From contig JANQDY010000117.1 of the NCBI GenBank assembly GCA_028278625.1, positions 1 to 23,075 on the forward strand: DNA of 23,075 nucleotides, given 5' to 3'. The translations under genes and the position numbers were made by a program. The notes under the pieces were generated by a model. The model worked only from the letters and a program-made list of their open reading frames with translations, was not told where the DNA came from and searched no databases. Shown in pieces: positions 1 through 19,587 of the stretch. Position 1 is the stretch's first letter; every line of letters begins with the position of its first letter. Source of the DNA: Thermodesulfobacteriota bacterium (lineage in GTDB: Bacteria; Desulfobacterota; DSM-4660; Desulfatiglandales; Desulfatiglandaceae).

Positions 1-244
1 GCGCCTGCATAAAAACCGGTCGAACCCCGCCATCTTTCACACATTAGGCTTTCTTCCTTTCTTCTCCCTCTGGGTGTTTAGGAACACTTTTCACTTTATT
101 TCATCCCAAAAGAGACACTATTCAATTATTCGTTTACTTGCGGTTCCCCTTATGGTAATTGATGAAAAACAATTGAGCCTCATCAGACTGATCAAGAGCT
201 AGGCCGGCTTCGACACCAGACTAACCTTGCGCGGAGGATAGACC
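1..244. other. AT-rich leader region, no gene recognised
   Basis: This stretch is visibly AT-richer than the small gene that follows it. I see no tRNA, insertion-sequence end or convincing promoter. One + frame is open from the window edge to a TAG at 200-202, but its translation is rich in Phe, Leu and Ser and resembles no family I know, so I do not call it. A short dyad, ATCAG-a-CTGAT, sits at 182-192. The only strong signal is the ribosome-binding site GGAGG at about 232-236, which belongs to the gene starting at 245. Confidence 0.5.
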
Positions 245-499
245 ATGGAATACGAGCGCCCCAGAGTGAGACCCCTTAACAGCAAATCCGCCAGCGGCTA
301 CTGCGGCACCGGCACCGGCGCCTCCTCAAGCGGCTGTACGGCCGGTCCGGCCGTGGCCACCTTCTGCGCGGGAGGGATGTCGGCGGCAGCCACTTCCTGT
401 GCCAACGGATTCAGCGCCAACGCCGGCGACTGTGCCATGGGGGTGACCGCCGCCACGATCTGGCCGACCCGTTGCGTGACCGGAAACGCACCTGCCTAA
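245..499 (+). CDS. Cys-rich C-x-x-G repeat peptide, candidate RiPP precursor
   Basis: An 84-residue peptide starts at an ATG behind a clear GGAGG ribosome-binding site with about 7 nt of spacing. Cysteines lie at residues 20, 31, 41, 52, 63 and 77. Each begins a C-x-x-G unit (CGTG, CTAG, CAGG, CANG, CAMG, CVTG), and the units recur every 10-11 residues (14 for the last interval) in a background of Ala, Gly, Ser and Thr. Residues 3-8 read YERPRV, matching the Y-x-x-P-x-[L/V] leader pattern that RiPP recognition elements bind in lasso and related peptides. There is no hydrophobic signal peptide. The gene is far GC-richer than its flanks (about 78% in one 60-base row), which supports it being coding. 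I infer a ribosomally made, post-translationally modified peptide with thioether or other Cys-based crosslinks. No maturase or transporter specific to it is visible in the window, and genes to its left are not available. A metal-binding or structural Cys-rich peptide is the alternative. Confidence 0.6.
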   Translation: MEYERPRVRPLNSKSASGYCGTGTGASSSGCTAGPAVATFCAGGMSAAATSCANGFSANAGDCAMGVTAATIWPTRCVTGNAPA

Positions 500-12589: not shown

Positions 12590-13420
12590 ATGGAAAGTCT
12601 GATTGCGAAAACAACGAAGATGCGGTTTGAACCGGTGGCCATTCTTTTTGGCGATGAGAAACCCGAGAATTCCCGGCAGTTCAAAGAGGGCAAATGGGGA
12701 TGCGCCTTGTTTATGTTGGGGGCCGCCACCAGGGGTGCAACGGCGGTGTTTGACCGTAAGACCTATGCCTGTTGGGGGGCCGGTGTGGGTTTGGGGTTCG
12801 GAAATCAGTACGAACATTTTCCGGGCGGAAAAGACTGTTTTCACTACTTCCTTTCGGTGGGAAATGCGGCGTGGGGCAAGGGGCAGGAGGCATGCAAAAA
12901 ACTTGAACCGTATGTGAGCCGTGAAATGTATGACAATTTCGCTCAGGGTGAACGGTATGCCAAGACCCCGGAACTGGTGGAAGATTTTATCAACAATCTG
13001 CCCATCATGGACATTCCCCATGAATATGTGATTTTTAAGCCGCTCAAAGATGTGGGAGAGGGAGACTCTCCCGAGGTTGTTGTCTTTATAGGGGACATGG
13101 ATCAGATTTCCGCCTTGAGCGTCCTGGCCAATTACGGTCGCAAAGGGAATGAAAACGTCATTTTTCCATTTGCGGCCGGATGTCAGAACATCGGTATATA
13201 CGCCTTTAAGGAAGCGCAGTCGGAAAATCCCAGGGCGGTCTTGGGGTTGAATGACATATCCGCCAGGGTGGCGCTCAAGCGGATGTTGAAGGAAGATGTC
13301 ATGACCTTTGCTACCCCGTTTTCCCTCTATGAAGAAATGGAGAAAAACGTGCCCGGCAGTTTTCTGGAACGGGGGACCTGGCACCAGTTGATGGCGCTTA
13401 AGAAGAAACGGCACGGTTGA
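12590..13420 (+). CDS. DUF169 family protein
   Basis: The 276-residue cytosolic protein matches the DUF169 family (PF02596): PVAILFGDEKPEN near the start, GKWGCALFMLGAA, a glycine-rich ACWGAGVGLGFG region and EVVVFIGDMDQISALSVL, then a conserved-looking Cys in FAAGCQNIG. The ATG at 12590 has AAAGGAG at 8-nt spacing and a promoter directly upstream. A frame opening at 12470 would add 40 residues that span the promoter, so I reject it. The family's function is unknown; it is common in anaerobes and archaea. Here it is the promoter-proximal gene of an operon with an ornithine cyclodeaminase-like gene and putA, so a role in arginine, ornithine or proline use, perhaps in sensing or binding, is a reasonable inference. 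Confidence 0.85.
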   Translation: MESLIAKTTKMRFEPVAILFGDEKPENSRQFKEGKWGCALFMLGAATRGATAVFDRKTYACWGAGVGLGFGNQYEHFPGGKDCFHYFLSVGNAAWGKGQEACKKLEPYVSREMYDNFAQGERYAKTPELVEDFINNLPIMDIPHEYVIFKPLKDVGEGDSPEVVVFIGDMDQISALSVLANYGRKGNENVIFPFAAGCQNIGIYAFKEAQSENPRAVLGLNDISARVALKRMLKEDVMTFATPFSLYEEMEKNVPGSFLERGTWHQLMALKKKRHG

Positions 13421-13467
13421 TTAGCCGAAAACCATATGAAAGCGTGCCTGTTTTAAAAGGAACACGG

Positions 13468-14583
13468 GTGGACCAAATGACATTTCAACTGCCCCGCTAC
13501 ACACCGCCGGATTTTGGAAAAAAGCCTTTGGCGGACGCGCCGGAAGTGGTCTTCAGGTGTGTTTTAAAGAACGGCGTGGCGCCTGACAACTATCATGCCA
13601 CGTCCATCTTTCCCGAGTACTTTCATCTGGGAAAGGGACGGTGGTCTCTACTAAGGGAATCGCGCATGGATTGCGTGGTGGTTCTGGAAGGTGATGGGTC
13701 GCTATCCGTCAAGGCGTTCAGGCATCTCAAACCCGGTGATCAGGTGGCCTGCGGACGAAAGGAAGACGGCTCAGATGGCATATTCGTCCATTACGAGCCA
13801 TTCGGGTCCAAGGATGAAAATGCAAAGGGCTTCGCTTTTCGAACACGGGTCACCCGGGAGAGCAGCTTTTCCATCGACTATGATCAGTTGTACGAACTCC
13901 TGGCGTTTGAACGGGAAAACGGTTTCATCCTCTGGGTGCTGGGTCCGGCCGTGGCATTTGATCAGGATGCCCGGGACGCCTTTGCGTCACTGGTCACAAG
14001 AGGATATGTGAACGCCATGCTGGCCGGAAACGCTCTGGCCGTGCATGATGTGGAGGCATCCCTCTTTGAAACGGCCCTGGGACTGGAGATCTATGCCAAA
14101 CGGGCCGCCCCTTTGGGACACTACCATCACCTGGATGCCATTAACCGGATTCGGGCCGAGGGCTCCATGGAAAAAGCGGTTCTTCAGGGATCCGTGAAAA
14201 CCGGCGTGATGAGAGCCCTCATTGAAAGCAAGGTCCCTTTCGTGCTGGCCGGTTCCATACGGGATGACGGCCCCCTGCCGGGCGTTGTGGCGGATGTTTA
14301 TGAGGCCCAGGACCAAATGAGGGCGCTGACGAGAAAAGCCACCACGGTCATTGCGCTGGCCACCCAGCTGCATGCCATTGCCACCGGCAACATGGTCCCC
14401 TGCTATCAAGTGATGGAAATAGACCTTGTGCGGCCCGTCTTCTTCTACATTGTGGATATGTCGGAATTTGCCATCAACAAGCTGGCCAATCGCGGATCCC
14501 TTTCGGCACGTTCCGTCATCACAAACGTTCAGGACTTTGTGGTGACCGTAGAACGGGGATTGCGAATCAGATCCGGACAGTGA
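13468..14583 (+). CDS. Alternative ornithine cyclodeaminase-like protein (TIGR00300/LOR-SDH)
   Basis: The 371-residue protein resembles the TIGR00300 / LOR-SDH conserved domain family, which includes the archaeal ornithine cyclodeaminase and the C-terminal half of cyanobacterial AgrE/ArgZ. Recognisable blocks are APDNYHATSIFPEYF, MDCVVVLEGDG, the GHYHHLDAINRIRAEGS segment, PFVLAGSIRDDGPLPGV and VEAQ-like DVYEAQDQMR. The reaction would be L-ornithine to L-proline plus ammonia with NAD. The start is uncertain: GTG at 13468 has AAAAGGA 6 nt upstream and is preferred; TTG at 13417 (overlapping the DUF169 stop, 388 residues) and ATG at 13477 are alternatives. It appears to lack the N-terminal 'IEGHL' region of the usual roughly 400-residue family members. 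It lies between DUF169 and putA, which would consume its proline product. Confidence 0.72.
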   Translation: MDQMTFQLPRYTPPDFGKKPLADAPEVVFRCVLKNGVAPDNYHATSIFPEYFHLGKGRWSLLRESRMDCVVVLEGDGSLSVKAFRHLKPGDQVACGRKEDGSDGIFVHYEPFGSKDENAKGFAFRTRVTRESSFSIDYDQLYELLAFERENGFILWVLGPAVAFDQDARDAFASLVTRGYVNAMLAGNALAVHDVEASLFETALGLEIYAKRAAPLGHYHHLDAINRIRAEGSMEKAVLQGSVKTGVMRALIESKVPFVLAGSIRDDGPLPGVVADVYEAQDQMRALTRKATTVIALATQLHAIATGNMVPCYQVMEIDLVRPVFFYIVDMSEFAINKLANRGSLSARSVITNVQDFVVTVERGLRIRSGQ

Positions 14584-14597
14584 AAGGATGAACGGTC

Positions 14598-17500
14598 ATG
14601 GCGGCTCTAAACAGGTTGGATCAGACGGTGGAAGAAGCGCTGGCCCTTGCGGAGACCTGGCAGACCAGGGCAAATGCGCTGCAGACAAGGGAGGAAAAAG
14701 CGCTTCAAAAGCAGATGGCCCTTTTTTTGGGCAACCCCCGGGACAAGGTGGTCATGACCGCCCTGATAGATCAGAGCTTCCGTTCGGAAGATCCCGACCG
14801 GGTGGCGGATCAGATCAAATACCTCATGGACCGATACGGCGTTCCCGCCTTCTTTTCCGTGGGAGACAAGCTGCTGATGCGGCTTTTCATGGGAATCGGA
14901 CGCCATTTTCCCCACACATCCGTTCCGCGCTTTATCGCCAAAATGCGGGATGATTCCAGCCGGTCGGTGATTCCCGGTGAAGAAGGGGTCTTGAACGAAC
15001 ACCTGGCGATCCGGCGCAAAGAAGGGGTCATCATGAACATCAACCACCTGGGCGAAGCCGTCCTGGGTGAGACCGAGGCCAACAACCGTTTCAAAACCTA
15101 TTTGCAGGACCTTCAAAACCCCCATATTGAATACATTTCCGTCAAAATCTCCACCATCTACTCCCAGATCTCTTCCCTTGCCTTCTCCCATACCGTTGCC
15201 ATACTGGTTAAACGCCTATCCGAGCTTTTGAGAACCGCCGCTGAGAACCGTTTCACGCGATCAGACGGGACCCTGGTTCCCAAATTCGTTAATCTGGATA
15301 TGGAGGAGTACCGGGATCTCGAAATCACCGTGGCCGCCTTTATGGCGACACTGAACCAGGCCCGGTTCAAGGATGTGTCCGCTGGTTTGGCGCTCCAGGC
15401 CTACCTGCCCGATTCTTACCGCATCCAGCGGATCTTGACGGAATGGGCCAGGGAACGGGTGAGGAAGGGTTGCGCCCCCATCAAGATTCGCATTGTCAAA
15501 GGCGCCAACCTGGAAATGGAGAAGGTGGAATCGGCCCTTCGCAACTGGCCCCTGGCCACCTATGACAACAAAGCGGATGTGGATGCTTCTTTTAAACGGA
15601 TGGTGCGCTACGGCCTGCGGCCGGAAAACACCAAAGCCGTCAACATCGGGATCGGATCCCACAACCTCTTTGATCTGGCCTATGCCTTTGTTCTGGCCAA
15701 AAAGAACCGTGTTCTCAAACATTTCTCCGTGGAAATGCTGGAAGGAATGGCGGACCATGTCCGCCGGGCCATTCAGGAGACGGTCCACGATCTGGTCCTC
15801 TACGCGCCGGTGGCCACCCGGGACCAGTTCGTGAGCGCCATTGCCTATCTCATCCGACGTCTGGATGAAAACACGGGGGAAGAGAACTTCCTGCGGCACG
15901 CCTGTTATCTGACCCCGTCAAGCGGCCAATGGGGATATCTGAAGAATCAATTCCTTTGCTCACTTAAGCACCATGACCCAGATCCGGACATCCCGTTTCG
16001 AACCCAGGACCGCAACGAAGAAGCGCTTCAGGAGACAGACGATTTCCCTTATGACGGTCCCTTCAGAAACGTTCCCGACACGGACTGGTCTTTGCCCCCC
16101 AACCGCTCATGGGCCCAGGGGATCAGGGACAAATGGATGAGGGGACCAAAAGATGGGCCTCTGGAAATCCCCCTGGTGGTCTCCGGCCGCGAGATCTTCG
16201 AAGGCCGCGGGACCCGCAAGGTCATGGACCCTTCACGGATGGAGCAGGGGGCTCACCCGGTGATTGCCCTCTGGGTCCGGGCCCATGAGAGAGATCTCAA
16301 TAGGGCGGTTGCCGTGGCAAAGGCAGATCCCGACGGCTGGCGCCGGATGGCGCCGGATGCGCGTCTGAAAGTCCTTGACAGGGCCGCGTTGGAGATCAAC
16401 CGATCAAGGGGAGATCTCATGGGTGCGGCCGCCGCCGAAGGGGGAAAGGTCTTTGGTGAATCGGATCCGGAGGTGTCCGAAGCCGTCGATTTTGTGCGCT
16501 ATTATGCCCGCACCGCCTGTGATCTGGAAAGACTCCCGGGGCTCAGGTTTCGGGGAAAAGGGGTGGTTCTGGTGGTGAGCCCCTGGAATTTTCCGGTGGC
16601 CATTCCCTGCGGCGGTATTGCCGCCGCCCTGGCCTCGGGGAACACCGTCTTGCTGAAACCCGCATCCAGCGCGGTTTTAAGTGCCTGGCTCCTTTGCAGG
16701 TGTTTCTGGCGGGCCGGCATCGGCCAAAACACCCTTCAGTTCGTCCCCTGTTCGGGTGAGGAAGTTGGAAGCCTTATGTCAGCCCATCCCCATGTGGATT
16801 TTGTGATTTTCACCGGCGGAACCGAAACGGGACTCAAAATCCAACGAGCAAGGCCCCAGGGTCTCTTGGCCGCCGAAACAGGCGGCAAGAACGCCACCAT
16901 TGTAACCGCCATGTCCGACCGGGACCAGGCCATCAAGCATGTCGTTCAGTCCGCATTCGGACACTCGGGTCAGAAATGCTCCGCCACCAGCCTGCTGATT
17001 CTGGAAAAACCGGTATATGAGGACCGAAAATTCAAGCGCCAGCTGGTGGATGCGGCGGAAAGCTTCAGCGTGGGGTCCCCTTGGGATTTTCAAAACAGGA
17101 CAGGCCCCCTCATCCGGCCTCCCTCCAAAGACCTCAAGTGGGCCCTCACCCAGCTGGACCCGGGAGAGAAGTGGATTTTAAAACCGAAGATGAAAGGTGA
17201 AAACCCGCACCTCTGGACCCCGGGCATCAAGTATGGGGTTAAACGGGGATCGCGATCCCAAGGAACAGAGTTTTTCGGTCCGGTCCTCTCGGTTCTGTCC
17301 GCGGAAGACCTGGATGAAGCCATTTGCATGGCCAATGAGACCGGTTACGGGCTCACCGCCGGCCTCGAAAGCCTCGACCGCCGGGAGCAGGAATACTGGC
17401 AAAAGCGGATCAAAGCGGGGAACCTCTATATCAATCGGGGCACCACCGGCGCCATGGTGCTGCGCCAGCCCTTTGGCGGCATGGGCAAATCGGCACTGGG

Positions 17501-18218
17501 GGCGGGCATCAAGGTGGGCGGCCCCAATTATCTGGTCCAAATGATGGATTTTGATGAAGTGAAAGCGCCGGCACTGGGGCCGCTCAAGACCGGGAGCCCC
17601 TTTCTTTCGGTCATTCAGGATTGGGAGATGAAGCTTGCCTGGGGACGGCTCAGTGCGTGGCGAAAGGATCTTCAAAAGATCGTTCTGGCGGTTCGAAGCT
17701 GTCTATACTGGATGGACACGGAGTTTTCACTGGAAAGGGATGATGTCAACCTCCGGGGGGAGGACAACATTTTCCGGTACCTCCCCTATGACCGGGTGGT
17801 TTTGCGGATTCACGAAAAGGACTCCCTTTTCGAGATCCTGACACGCGTTGCAGCCGCACGGATTGCCGGGACCGAAACCGTTTTGAGTGTTCAAAAAGGT
17901 CTTAAAAGCCGTGCCGTTGCGTTTCTCCATACAACCGACGGGGCCCTGTTCCTGAACGGACTGGTGCCAAAGGAAGAGACGGACGCGCAATTGATGGAAA
18001 TGCTGCCACAAACGCCCCTGGTGCGCTACGGGGCCCCTGATCGCGTGCCCATGAAAGTGTATCAGGCCGCCGTCGGTGCGGGCTGCCACATCGCCCGTGA
18101 ACCGGTGCTCATGGAAGGGCGCATCGAAATGTGCCACTATTTCAAGGAGCAGAGCCTTTGTAACGCCTATCACCGTTACGGCAATCTGGGGGACAGGCTC
18201 TCCCATGGCTGGAATTAA
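14598..18218 (+). CDS. putA: PutA-type proline dehydrogenase / P5C dehydrogenase
   Basis: The 1206-residue bifunctional enzyme oxidises proline to P5C (FAD) and P5C/glutamate semialdehyde to glutamate (NAD). Proline dehydrogenase barrel: about residues 60-470, with the RIVKGA flavin-site motif at 298-303 and the paired Arg420-Arg421 (LIRRLDEN) that bind the substrate carboxylate. Aldehyde dehydrogenase domain: about 525-1000, with PWNFP at 662-666, general-base Glu760 in AAETGGK and nucleophile Cys794 in GHSGQKC. About 200 further residues form a C-terminal extension, as in long PutAs. There is no N-terminal ribbon-helix-helix domain, so it should not repress its own operon. The ATG at 14598 has AAAGGA about 9 nt upstream and lies 14 nt after the cyclodeaminase stop. 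PutA-type proteins attach to the membrane and pass electrons to quinone. Confidence 0.93.
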   Translation: MAALNRLDQTVEEALALAETWQTRANALQTREEKALQKQMALFLGNPRDKVVMTALIDQSFRSEDPDRVADQIKYLMDRYGVPAFFSVGDKLLMRLFMGIGRHFPHTSVPRFIAKMRDDSSRSVIPGEEGVLNEHLAIRRKEGVIMNINHLGEAVLGETEANNRFKTYLQDLQNPHIEYISVKISTIYSQISSLAFSHTVAILVKRLSELLRTAAENRFTRSDGTLVPKFVNLDMEEYRDLEITVAAFMATLNQARFKDVSAGLALQAYLPDSYRIQRILTEWARERVRKGCAPIKIRIVKGANLEMEKVESALRNWPLATYDNKADVDASFKRMVRYGLRPENTKAVNIGIGSHNLFDLAYAFVLAKKNRVLKHFSVEMLEGMADHVRRAIQETVHDLVLYAPVATRDQFVSAIAYLIRRLDENTGEENFLRHACYLTPSSGQWGYLKNQFLCSLKHHDPDPDIPFRTQDRNEEALQETDDFPYDGPFRNVPDTDWSLPPNRSWAQGIRDKWMRGPKDGPLEIPLVVSGREIFEGRGTRKVMDPSRMEQGAHPVIALWVRAHERDLNRAVAVAKADPDGWRRMAPDARLKVLDRAALEINRSRGDLMGAAAAEGGKVFGESDPEVSEAVDFVRYYARTACDLERLPGLRFRGKGVVLVVSPWNFPVAIPCGGIAAALASGNTVLLKPASSAVLSAWLLCRCFWRAGIGQNTLQFVPCSGEEVGSLMSAHPHVDFVIFTGGTETGLKIQRARPQGLLAAETGGKNATIVTAMSDRDQAIKHVVQSAFGHSGQKCSATSLLILEKPVYEDRKFKRQLVDAAESFSVGSPWDFQNRTGPLIRPPSKDLKWALTQLDPGEKWILKPKMKGENPHLWTPGIKYGVKRGSRSQGTEFFGPVLSVLSAEDLDEAICMANETGYGLTAGLESLDRREQEYWQKRIKAGNLYINRGTTGAMVLRQPFGGMGKSALGAGIKVGGPNYLVQMMDFDEVKAPALGPLKTGSPFLSVIQDWEMKLAWGRLSAWRKDLQKIVLAVRSCLYWMDTEFSLERDDVNLRGEDNIFRYLPYDRVVLRIHEKDSLFEILTRVAAARIAGTETVLSVQKGLKSRAVAFLHTTDGALFLNGLVPKEETDAQLMEMLPQTPLVRYGAPDRVPMKVYQAAVGAGCHIAREPVLMEGRIEMCHYFKEQSLCNAYHRYGNLGDRLSHGWN

Positions 18219-18222
18219 GCTT

Positions 18223-19587
18223 TCATTCTGCTTCGTTTGCTATTCTCATTATCTCCTGTTCTTTTTTTTCGTCAATCTTATCCAATTTGGCTTCTTTCAT
18301 AATCTCAAAATAGGCGTTGTTCAATCTGTCAAATATGTCAAGTGAGGAATCCATTTTTCCAAAATGATAAAATTTGCCCCGCCAAAGACTTTCGTTCATA
18401 TGATCGTAAGTATGATCTTCCGCCAGGTAGACGCCCCCTTTAATCTCATTTATCATGTCCAATGGCAGTGTTGTCGGATTGATATCAATAGGAATATTCT
18501 CTCTTTGCGCCATATCAACCAGTTCGTTAAAATAGATCAGGGCATGGGGTGAGAAAATGATTCCGGTTTGAAGAGCGCCGGGGCCCCAATAACCATTTGT
18601 GATGCCGCGATATGAATCCCTGAGATTGTATGTCATTTCAAAGACCGCATCCTGGTTGAATGAGAGTGAATTGGAGCAAGGCGTCGTTCCATCGCAGGTT
18701 GGAATTCCGAGGAGATTATTGGATATTGATATCCTGAGTTCTTCCCCCATATAGTTCTCCGGCATTCCCCCGACTTTGCCGTCTGCCTGATCCATAAAAG
18801 TGGAGTGATACATTTCAATGCATGGAATACCGGGCTTGGCCAATTGAGCCAGTATTATGCCGGCCAGTGTTGTTGTGAGACCTATAAACACATTGCCCGG
18901 TATGCTCACGGGTCCTGAAACGCCACCCACCGGCATGGTAGAAATGCACAGTGGAATGTCGTATTCCACGGAAAGACGTATTTGTTCAAGAAGAAAAGAT
19001 CGGTATTTTAACATGAGTCCGCTTACGATTGTTACGATAAACGGCTTCTCGGCCAGTTGTTCTCTGCTTCCCCTGACAACGATGGCCATTCTTATTAGCT
19101 TTTCCAATTCAACGGGGAGGTTTCCAGCGCCAAGCATCATGGGCATATTCGTATTGCATATGACATTTGCATTGTCCAGATTGTAATTGTCCGTTGCGAT
19201 GAGATTCCCGTTGATATCAACATGCTCCAAATAGTTGTTTAGCTTGACCGTATCAATGAGTGACTCACTTGATGCTTGCTCAACTTTCTTTGTTTCAGGG
19301 CTATAGTAAGTAGGAGCCCTCATATCTCCTATGACGTACTTTTTATCTTTTCCATATTCTATGAAATTTTCACCGGATCTGTCCCACCATTTGAAATGAT
19401 TCGGTACGGTAGAAAGGGCCTTCTTGGATACATCAATTGGTATCTTTGCAAAATAGTCATCCGTTACCGTGCAATTGTTGGACTTGAATGTTTCGATCGC
19501 AAAATCATTATTGTCAATTTCAATGCCGGTAGTGGCAAGATAATCAAAGATGGCTTCTAACAGTTTTTTCTCATTCTCTAAGCTCAT
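18223..19587 (-). CDS. MttB-family (trimethylamine-type) methyltransferase, non-pyrrolysine
   Basis: The 454-residue cytosolic protein belongs to the MttB superfamily (PF06253/COG5598). Family-like stretches are SVEYDIPLCISTMPVGGVSG in the centre, the PENYMGEELRIS and LGIPTCDGTTP region, and the C-terminal LAEDHTYDHMNES. The reading frame has no internal TAG, so it does not encode pyrrolysine, unlike archaeal MttB. Such members (for example MtgB for glycine betaine, MtpB for proline betaine) pass a methyl group from a quaternary amine to a corrinoid protein, but no corrinoid partner is in the window. The ATG has AAAGGAG at 8 nt. It follows the aminotransferase by 65 nt. Base composition is much lower in GC (24/60 in the row at 19201, against 37/60 in the row at 20521), which suggests a separate origin. 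The substrate is unknown. Confidence 0.85.
   Translation of the reverse strand: MSLENEKKLLEAIFDYLATTGIEIDNNDFAIETFKSNNCTVTDDYFAKIPIDVSKKALSTVPNHFKWWDRSGENFIEYGKDKKYVIGDMRAPTYYSPETKKVEQASSESLIDTVKLNNYLEHVDINGNLIATDNYNLDNANVICNTNMPMMLGAGNLPVELEKLIRMAIVVRGSREQLAEKPFIVTIVSGLMLKYRSFLLEQIRLSVEYDIPLCISTMPVGGVSGPVSIPGNVFIGLTTTLAGIILAQLAKPGIPCIEMYHSTFMDQADGKVGGMPENYMGEELRISISNNLLGIPTCDGTTPCSNSLSFNQDAVFEMTYNLRDSYRGITNGYWGPGALQTGIIFSPHALIYFNELVDMAQRENIPIDINPTTLPLDMINEIKGGVYLAEDHTYDHMNESLWRGKFYHFGKMDSSLDIFDRLNNAYFEIMKEAKLDKIDEKKEQEIMRIANEAE

What the first reader, a model, noticed from the sequence alone, without database searches (positions are those of the whole stretch)
245..499. Six-unit C-x-x-G peptide with a Y-x-x-P-x-V leader: candidate new RiPP precursor
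Directly seen: six cysteines at residues 20, 31, 41, 52, 63 and 77, each opening C-x-x-G, with 10-11 residue spacing (14 for the last). The linkers consist mostly of Ala, Gly, Ser and Thr. An early YERPRV matches the pattern recognised by RiPP recognition elements in lasso-type leaders. A good GGAGG site precedes the ATG and the gene stands out as GC-rich in AT-rich surroundings. Established: radical-SAM or other enzymes modify repeated-Cys precursors (SCIFF, CXXX-repeat and Cys-every-fifth families). The C-x-x-G period of about 11 fits none that I can name. Inference: a thioether-crosslinked or otherwise modified product.
Basis: partly seen in the sequence, partly recalled or inferred. Interest (0 to 1): 0.78.

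Follow-up and report, generated by a model that had tools for sequence, protein, structure and literature searches.

The report
CxxG-repeat peptide for paired radical enzymes
This small gene very probably encodes the raw peptide for a modified natural product made by a little-studied set of radical enzymes in deltaproteobacteria, and its repeated Cys-x-x-Gly units point to a specific, testable sulfur bridge.

Summary
The 84-aa ORF is real: six C-x-x-G units, Y-x-x-P leader and a GGAGGA site are as described. A search of 5.8 billion proteins gave one close relative (P0001), with every Cys and every +3 Gly kept. The window starts just left of the gene, so no maturase is visible in it. Relatives solve it. 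In L008, the same downstream genes (nuclease, transglutaminase, ABC) are preceded by PqqD, PqqD, radical SAM, a weakly ScmC-like protein, a CxxG peptide and a signal-peptidase-like protein. The radical SAM is ScmF-like: the 'SynChlorMet' cassette of NCBIfam. In 395 genomes of NaphS2's phylum, 26 of 27 with ScmF also carry such peptides, against 6 of 368 without. A profile built without the window copy finds it at E=4e-12. NCBIfam already has a precursor model, ScmA (TIGR04252), which the NaphS2 peptide passes and the window peptide does not match. So: a divergent ScmA-like precursor, a known but apparently unstudied kind. Best chemical guess: each Cys bonds to the alpha-carbon of Gly+3, as in streptosactin's Cys31-Gly34 ring. 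That chemistry is inferred, not shown.

The parts
245..499 (+). ScmA-like CxxG-repeat RiPP precursor gene, 84 aa
233..238 (+). GGAGGA ribosome-binding site, 6 bases before the ATG
   Evidence: sequence
245..301 (+). Leader, residues 1-19; Y-E-R-P-R-V at residues 3-8 (bases 251-268)
   Evidence: [YW]xxP in 33 of 34 precursors; the motif (YETS in the 34th) starts 17-21 residues, once 25, before the first Cys; window leader closest to NaphS2's after P0001
302..313 (+). CxxG unit 1 (CGTG)
335..346 (+). CxxG unit 2 (CTAG)
365..376 (+). CxxG unit 3 (CAGG)
398..409 (+). CxxG unit 4 (CANG)
431..442 (+). CxxG unit 5 (CAMG)
473..484 (+). CxxG unit 6 (CVTG)
1..12 (+). Possible last three codons and stop (APA-stop) of a second precursor cut by the window edge
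   Evidence: APA-stop occurs twice among 46,128 12-mers of both strands: at base 1 and at base 488, the end of this gene; 10 of 12 bases equal; sequence after the two stops is not alike (159 of 300 shuffles score as well). Suggestive only

Best explanation
The gene encodes an ScmA-like precursor peptide of a SynChlorMet (Scm) cassette. A PqqD-like protein (ScmD) binds the Y-x-x-P leader and presents the repeat core to one or two SPASM radical SAM enzymes (ScmE, ScmF), which modify each C-x-x-G unit. Most likely chemistry: abstraction of a Gly alpha-hydrogen and a bond from the Cys sulfur of residue i to the alpha-carbon of Gly i+3, giving a chain of separate four-residue rings. A signal-peptidase-like protein then cuts off the leader and an ABC transporter moves the product out; ScmC (HprK-related by its model) and the nucleotidyltransferase may add a further modification. 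Shown by sequence: the gene, its family, the link of the family to ScmF-type cassettes, the near-invariant CxxG. Inferred: that a cassette lies left of the window edge or elsewhere in this genome (about 0.85), the leader-ScmD contact (about 0.8), the Cys-Gly thioether (about 0.45), leader removal and export (about 0.6). The confidence below is for the first sentence.
For: Synteny: L008 has PqqD, PqqD, ScmF-like rSAM, weakly ScmC-like protein, five-CxxG peptide, signal-peptidase-like protein, NTP_transf_5, then the same nuclease-transglutaminase-ABC block as the window. NaphS2, whose transglutaminase is 70% identical to the window's, has a full cassette over NCBIfam cut-offs (ScmF 591/400, ScmE 584/400, ScmD 120/100, ScmC 267/125 bits) with a six-CxxG peptide inside it. 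A precursor lies within the fetched region at 29 of 35 ScmF loci. Same 395 genomes: ScmF in 27, peptide in 32, both in 26; leaving out the 13 genomes used for the profile, 13 of 14 against 6 of 368, p=8e-19, relatedness not corrected; ScmF in 0 of 14 control genomes. Window frame found by a profile made without it and without P0001. Gly at +3 of 168 of 184 Cys, and Ala/Pro at +6 of 122 of 168 CxxG units. Odd Cys number in 14 of 34 peptides, so disulfide pairing cannot be the common rule. Solved relatives of ScmE and ScmF by sequence or fold include SkfB, SuiB and PqqE. Streptosactin has S-Calpha links Cys31-Gly34 and Cys25-Ser28, the same i to i+3 step (PMC8172795, passages). Gly has no beta-carbon, so if Gly is the acceptor the bond must be to its alpha-carbon.
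Against: No maturase gene was found in the window, and no genome is held for it, so the cassette of this organism is unseen. The window peptide does not match TIGR04252 at E<=1. L008's own proteins fall below the Scm cut-offs (ScmF 327/400, ScmD 28 and 38/100, ScmC 22/125). In three genomes the peptide lies on another contig than ScmF (G172, G240, G368), so it may not be adjacent here. The 168 of 184 count is inflated, because the peptides were picked partly by their CxxG content, and for six (L067, L084, L086c, L089, L090, L095) I took a later Met as start, which drops one Cys each from L067 and L095. 16 of 184 Cys lack Gly at +3 (six of these are C-x-x-x-G). One search scored only up to 5 candidates a genome and up to 14, so some absences may be misses. 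Fold similarity to SkfB, SuiB and PqqE does not tell which bond is made: those three make different bonds (recalled). No thioether has been observed.
Confidence: 0.85

Rival explanations
1. Scm-type precursor, but the modification is not a Cys-Gly thioether: CxxG is only the enzyme's recognition step, and the radical chemistry falls elsewhere (C-C link, epimerised residue, or thioether to another residue).
For: Fold neighbours of ScmE/ScmF include enzymes of several chemistries: SkfB, SuiB, PqqE, the epimerase EpeE, anaerobic sulfatase maturases. ScmE and ScmF together in most loci (ScmE-like at 27 of 35) suggest two steps. Ala/Pro at +6 is also conserved (122 of 168), so the unit is longer than CxxG.
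Against: Cys and Gly+3 are by far the most constant core residues (with the selection caveat); streptosactin shows the i to i+3 Cys-Gly bond.
Confidence: 0.45
2. The window copy is an orphan: a precursor without a functional cassette in this genome, or one served in trans from another locus.
For: No cassette gene recognised in 23 kb; trans arrangement in G172, G240 and G368; the near relatives G001, G003 and G004 have no ScmF at E<=1e-60.
Against: All six CxxG units and the leader motif are kept between the window copy and P0001; in L008 the cassette lies in the same slot before the nuclease gene.
Confidence: 0.2
3. Lasso-type or other RRE-dependent precursor, with the downstream transglutaminase-like protein acting as leader peptidase.
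For: Y-x-x-P leader; the transglutaminase weakly matches the lasso B2 model (19.6 bits, cut-off 33).
Against: Only 1 of the 26 related transglutaminase loci (L008) carries a short frame with 4 or more CxxG units, so the transglutaminase does not depend on the peptide. No lasso cyclase-type match among the 15 window proteins scanned with Pfam.
Confidence: 0.02
4. Chance reading frame in a GC-rich patch.
For: Low-complexity Ala/Gly/Ser/Thr composition; only one homolog at E<=0.01 in 5.8 billion proteins by single-sequence search.
Against: Shuffle, conservation and profile tests.
Confidence: 0.01

Closest known systems
SynChlorMet cassette precursor ScmA (NCBIfam TIGR04252), with ScmC, ScmD, ScmE, ScmF (TIGR04249, 04248, 04250, 04251)
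   Same: CxxG-repeat core; the NaphS2 member sits inside the cassette, and its leader (MMKWEKPGLNPLN) resembles that of the window copy (MEYERPRVRPLN)
   Different: Window peptide not matched by TIGR04252 at E<=1; cassette not visible in the window; the model matched residues 35-82 of the NaphS2 peptide, not its leader
Streptosactin (GggA/GggB), a sactipeptide
   Same: Thioether step i to i+3, including Cys31-Gly34; separate, unnested rings; SPASM radical SAM (PMC8172795 passages)
   Different: Two rings in a 14-residue product against 2-9 CxxG units here; one radical SAM enzyme, a protease and regulators in its cluster against the Scm set; no sequence relation of the precursors tested
SCIFF and other ranthipeptides (CteB, PapB)
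   Same: Cys-rich precursors with SPASM radical SAM enzymes; 5wgg (CteB, name recalled) is among the nearest solved sequences
   Different: Their acceptors are non-alpha carbons (recalled; PapB links Cys to Asp/Glu, abstract seen); here the near-invariant partner is Gly
Lasso precursors of the paeninodin type
   Same: Y-x-x-P leader; HprK-like and nucleotidyltransferase neighbours (recalled for paeninodin); one of 20 members matches NF033524 weakly (E 0.037)
   Different: Radical SAM genes in the cassettes; Cys-rich repeat core; no lasso cyclase match among the proteins scanned

Membership tests
SynChlorMet ScmA precursor (TIGR04252) | Score over the NCBIfam cut-off of 35 bits | tested here: not met
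   No match at E<=1 for the window peptide. NaphS2 69.1 bits passes; L087, in a cassette with ScmE- and ScmF-like genes, scores 28.7 and also falls short, and L082 and L098 have no match at E<=0.01; 7 of 20 members of A2 match at E<=1. So it is called ScmA-like, not a TIGR04252 equivalog
SynChlorMet ScmA precursor (TIGR04252) | Gene lies in a cassette with ScmC/D/E/F | tested here: inconclusive
   Window ends 244 bases left of the gene; no genome held. Met in relatives
Wider CxxG precursor group beside ScmF (this report) | Profile of ScmF-adjacent peptides recognises it | tested here: met
   40.5 bits; best of 2,000 shuffles 21.1
Wider CxxG precursor group beside ScmF (this report) | [YW]xxP 17-21 residues before the first Cys; CxxG units about 10-11 apart | tested here: met
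Sactipeptides | Cys sulfur to alpha-carbon thioether | not testable with these tools
   Needs mass spectrometry or NMR; motif fits streptosactin's ring
Sactipeptides | SPASM radical SAM maturase | tested here: inconclusive
   Not in the window; in relatives ScmE and ScmF carry the radical SAM CxxxCxxC and further conserved C-terminal Cys; Pfam finds SPASM in L008's ScmF-like protein
Ranthipeptides / SCIFF | Match to a SCIFF or ranthipeptide precursor model | tested here: not met
   No such NCBIfam match; near-invariant partner is Gly
Lasso peptides | B1/B2/C enzymes nearby | tested here: not met
   None among the window proteins scanned; left flank unseen; transglutaminase below the B2 cut-off

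The most novel reading that the evidence does not exclude
The whole ScmF-linked group, including this copy, makes a new architecture of sactipeptide: a chain of up to nine separate four-residue Cys-to-Gly(i+3) alpha-thioether rings, one per C-x-x-G-x-x-[A/P] unit, mostly 10-11 residues apart, made by a radical SAM pair with a free-standing leader-binding protein, in deltaproteobacterial lineages for which the searches here returned no studied product of this kind.
Probability: 0.4. Interest if true: 0.72.

Novelty: new member of a known kind. Interest (0 to 1): 0.52.

Why it matters
The Scm cassette has names in NCBIfam, but no study of it was found in the library searched. Tying a large, variable set of CxxG precursors to it, with a leader motif, a repeat unit and a chemical precedent, turns an unassigned pair of radical enzymes into a directly testable system. 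If each unit is a small Cys-Gly ring, it would be a repeat-built, perhaps protease-resistant peptide scaffold with ring number set by gene length.

Tried and rejected
Lasso reading: dropped, since the transglutaminase stands without the peptide in relatives. Disulfide reading: odd Cys counts in 14 of 34. Ser as a second acceptor at +3: not pushed, as 3 of the 6 cases are C-x-x-x-G. Searches that led nowhere: genome and viral contigs with A1, plasmids with the peptide and with ScmE, Rfam and tRNA in the window, promoter/terminator scan of 1-800 (one promoter-like site at 699-727, no terminator), A1 in the 85 held genomes of NaphS2's order, the same 85 again as its class (no true match, and as says an empty answer without a known positive shows little; the three weak hits hold in-frame stops, and the one opened, L039, shows no such peptide). 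Solved structures for the peptide: none at E<=1. The A2 profile found 36 proteins at E<=1e-3; 13 were read, the names shown are hypothetical or uncharacterised, and P0035, with three Pfam domains, is probably spurious. Literature: 'SynChlorMet' 0 papers; TIGR numbers 0; CXXG with radical SAM and RiPP 0; ScmE/ScmF 0 occurrences in the 25 listed of 51; 'cxxg' 0 in the 30 listed of 47; 'Cys-X-X-Gly' 0 in the 25 listed of 107; a wider search listed 9 papers, seen as a listing only. The only paper opened was PMC8172795, passages by term, found. The library lacks most subscription journals, so absence there is weak evidence.

Full report
THE OBSERVATION. The gene is more than chance: no shuffle of 100,000 that keeps the Cys positions reaches six of six.

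HOMOLOGS. A single-sequence search of 5.8 billion proteins gave one relative at E<=0.01, P0001, 82 aa, 77% identical in the alignment. It differs at 21 of 84 columns including a two-residue gap; none of the 12 Cys and +3 Gly positions changes (p=0.024 overall; p=0.0076 in residues 38-72, where 18 changes fall). No genome is held for the window, and direct scans for the peptide in genome and viral contigs found nothing.

THE NEIGHBOURHOOD THROUGH RELATIVES. Downstream of the peptide lie a bifunctional nuclease (776-1273), a transglutaminase-like protein (1380-2888), an ABC ATPase and its likely permease. Scanning with the transglutaminase gave 26 loci, the nearest at 67-71% identity, among them NaphS2. 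Of 21 loci in which the nuclease gene was found, 15 have next to it a gene on the opposite strand that, where complete, codes for 848-888 residues (N-termini alike in most; family not tested further); in L008 that slot holds a cassette instead, and in the window the peptide. L008 reads: PqqD-like (cut by the contig end), PqqD-like, radical SAM/SPASM, a weakly ScmC-like protein, an 82-aa peptide with five CxxG units and a YEPP leader, a signal-peptidase-like protein, NTP_transf_5, then nuclease, transglutaminase and ABC.

THE CASSETTE. The L008 radical SAM is closest to ScmF of the SynChlorMet cassette (TIGR04251, 327 bits, cut-off 400); its PqqD-like (28 and 38 bits, cut-off 100) and ScmC-like (22, cut-off 125) proteins match the Scm models more weakly. 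NaphS2 has the full set over the cut-offs: ScmF 591, ScmE 584, ScmD 120 and ScmC 267 bits, with a six-CxxG peptide between ScmE and ScmC. Of the 26 genomes behind the transglutaminase loci, 9 have ScmF at E<=1e-60 and 2 over its cut-off; controls 0 of 14. I fetched 34 regions around ScmF-like genes; with L008 that is 35 loci. A small YxxP/CxxG peptide lies within the region at 29 of 35 (L078's is 47 aa and was seen only; a 176-aa overlapping frame in L079 was not counted). Of the six without one, four belong to genomes with such a peptide elsewhere (G240, G368, G172, G128), one has the weak ScmF match of G231 (215 bits), and one lies on a 4.6-kb contig (G013). By best-scoring reference, ScmE-like proteins are at 27 of 35, ScmC-like at 28 and signal-peptidase-like at 17, several contigs being cut; ScmE and ScmF are related, so these labels are approximate. 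The ABC transporter of the cassettes was named from its sequence and not scanned against a family library.

GENOME-WIDE LINK. In 395 genomes of NaphS2's phylum, ScmF (E<=1e-60) is in 27 (14 over the cut-off; controls 0 of 14) and the peptide profile A2 (E<=1e-3) in 32; 26 have both. Fisher p=7e-34. Thirteen of the 395 genomes gave rows of A2; without them it is 13 of 14 against 6 of 368, p=8e-19. Relatedness of genomes is not corrected, and only up to 5 or 14 candidates a genome were scored. Of the six peptide-only genomes, G118 and G338 have a short ScmF-like stretch beside the peptide (cut by the contig end in G338), G200 has ScmC- and signal-peptidase-like genes beside it on a 5.9-kb contig, in G092 the peptide lies at the end of a 4-kb contig, and G138 and G274 are weak hits without support (G274 was not fetched). 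G231 is the one ScmF-positive genome without a peptide.

IS THE WINDOW COPY ONE OF THEM? A profile from 32 ScmF-linked peptides, window and P0001 left out, scores the window peptide at 40.5 bits; 2,000 shuffles reach at most 21.1; among 543 frames of the window it stands alone (E=4e-12, next 0.88). Its leader is nearest to that of NaphS2 apart from P0001 (0 of 5,000 shuffles as good). Bases 1-12 of the window read APA-stop, a string found elsewhere in the window only at the end of this very gene; the bases after the two stops are not alike. A second precursor may thus lie at the edge; two or more precursors in one region occur in L076 and L086. This is a hint, not a proof.

THE REPEAT UNIT. 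In 34 peptides, Gly follows at +3 in 168 of 184 Cys (shuffle mean 43.5, maximum 61 in 2,000 shuffles). The set was picked partly by CxxG content, so this number is inflated, and six peptides were given a later Met start than the longest frame, which leaves out two Cys. Ala or Pro at +6 follows 122 of 168 CxxG units and was no selection criterion; in the window it holds for five of six. Of 150 Cys-to-Cys steps, 70 are 10 and 41 are 11 residues. [YW]xxP is in 33 of 34 leaders (W in NaphS2; YETS in L076b), starting 17-21 residues before the first Cys, once 25. Cys number is odd in 14 of 34. Six of the 16 exceptions are C-x-x-x-G.

MECHANISM. ScmE and ScmF have the CxxxCxxC radical SAM motif and further conserved C-terminal Cys fitting a SPASM domain. 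By sequence their nearest solved relatives are SkfB, PqqE, 5wgg (CteB, name recalled), SuiB, a cytosylglucuronate decarboxylase and MoaA. Models (mean pLDDT 88.8 and 86.3) match SuiB, SkfB, anaerobic sulfatase maturases, PqqE and, for ScmE, the 5why thioether enzyme. Those enzymes make different bonds (recalled), so fold does not fix the chemistry. The constant Cys/Gly+3 pair does suggest it: Gly offers only its alpha-carbon, and streptosactin has exactly such links, Cys31-Gly34 and Cys25-Ser28 (PMC8172795, passages read). I therefore propose one S-Calpha ring per unit (about 0.45), leader binding by ScmD (about 0.8; that PqqD-like domains bind YxxP leaders is recalled) and signal-peptidase/ABC-mediated cleavage and export (about 0.6).

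KNOWN OR NEW. NCBIfam holds a precursor model, TIGR04252 'SCM_precur_ScmA'; 7 of 20 members of A2 match it at E<=1, the window copy does not. So the kind is catalogued and this is a divergent member. No paper on it was found in the library (some searches showed only part of their lists), which lacks most subscription journals.

Noticed in passing
window 1-12: APA-stop string equal in protein to the end of the peptide gene; perhaps the tail of a tandem precursor cut by the window edge.
   Followed up: partly
L001, L002, L004, L005, L007, L009 and others, upstream of the nuclease gene: A gene on the opposite strand (848-888 residues where complete) stands before the nuclease gene in 15 of 21 loci; in L008 the Scm-like cassette and in the window the precursor takes that place.
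   Followed up: partly
G172:C85, G240:C34, G368:C7 (L134, L135, L136): CxxG precursors on a contig other than the ScmF gene, suggesting maturation in trans or split cassettes.
   Followed up: partly
L071:7345-7701: A 119-aa precursor with 14 Cys, only 8 of them CxxG, including CC and C-x-C pairs; unlike the rest of the group.
   Followed up: no
L086: One 20-kb region carries two ScmF-like genes and three precursors of different types.
   Followed up: no
window 13417-14583, 14598-18218, 18223-19587: ArgZ-like C-terminal protein and, on the other strand, an MTTB-family methyltransferase-like protein; between them a 1206-aa protein that looks like proline/P5C dehydrogenase (judged from its sequence by recall, not scanned).
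   Followed up: no
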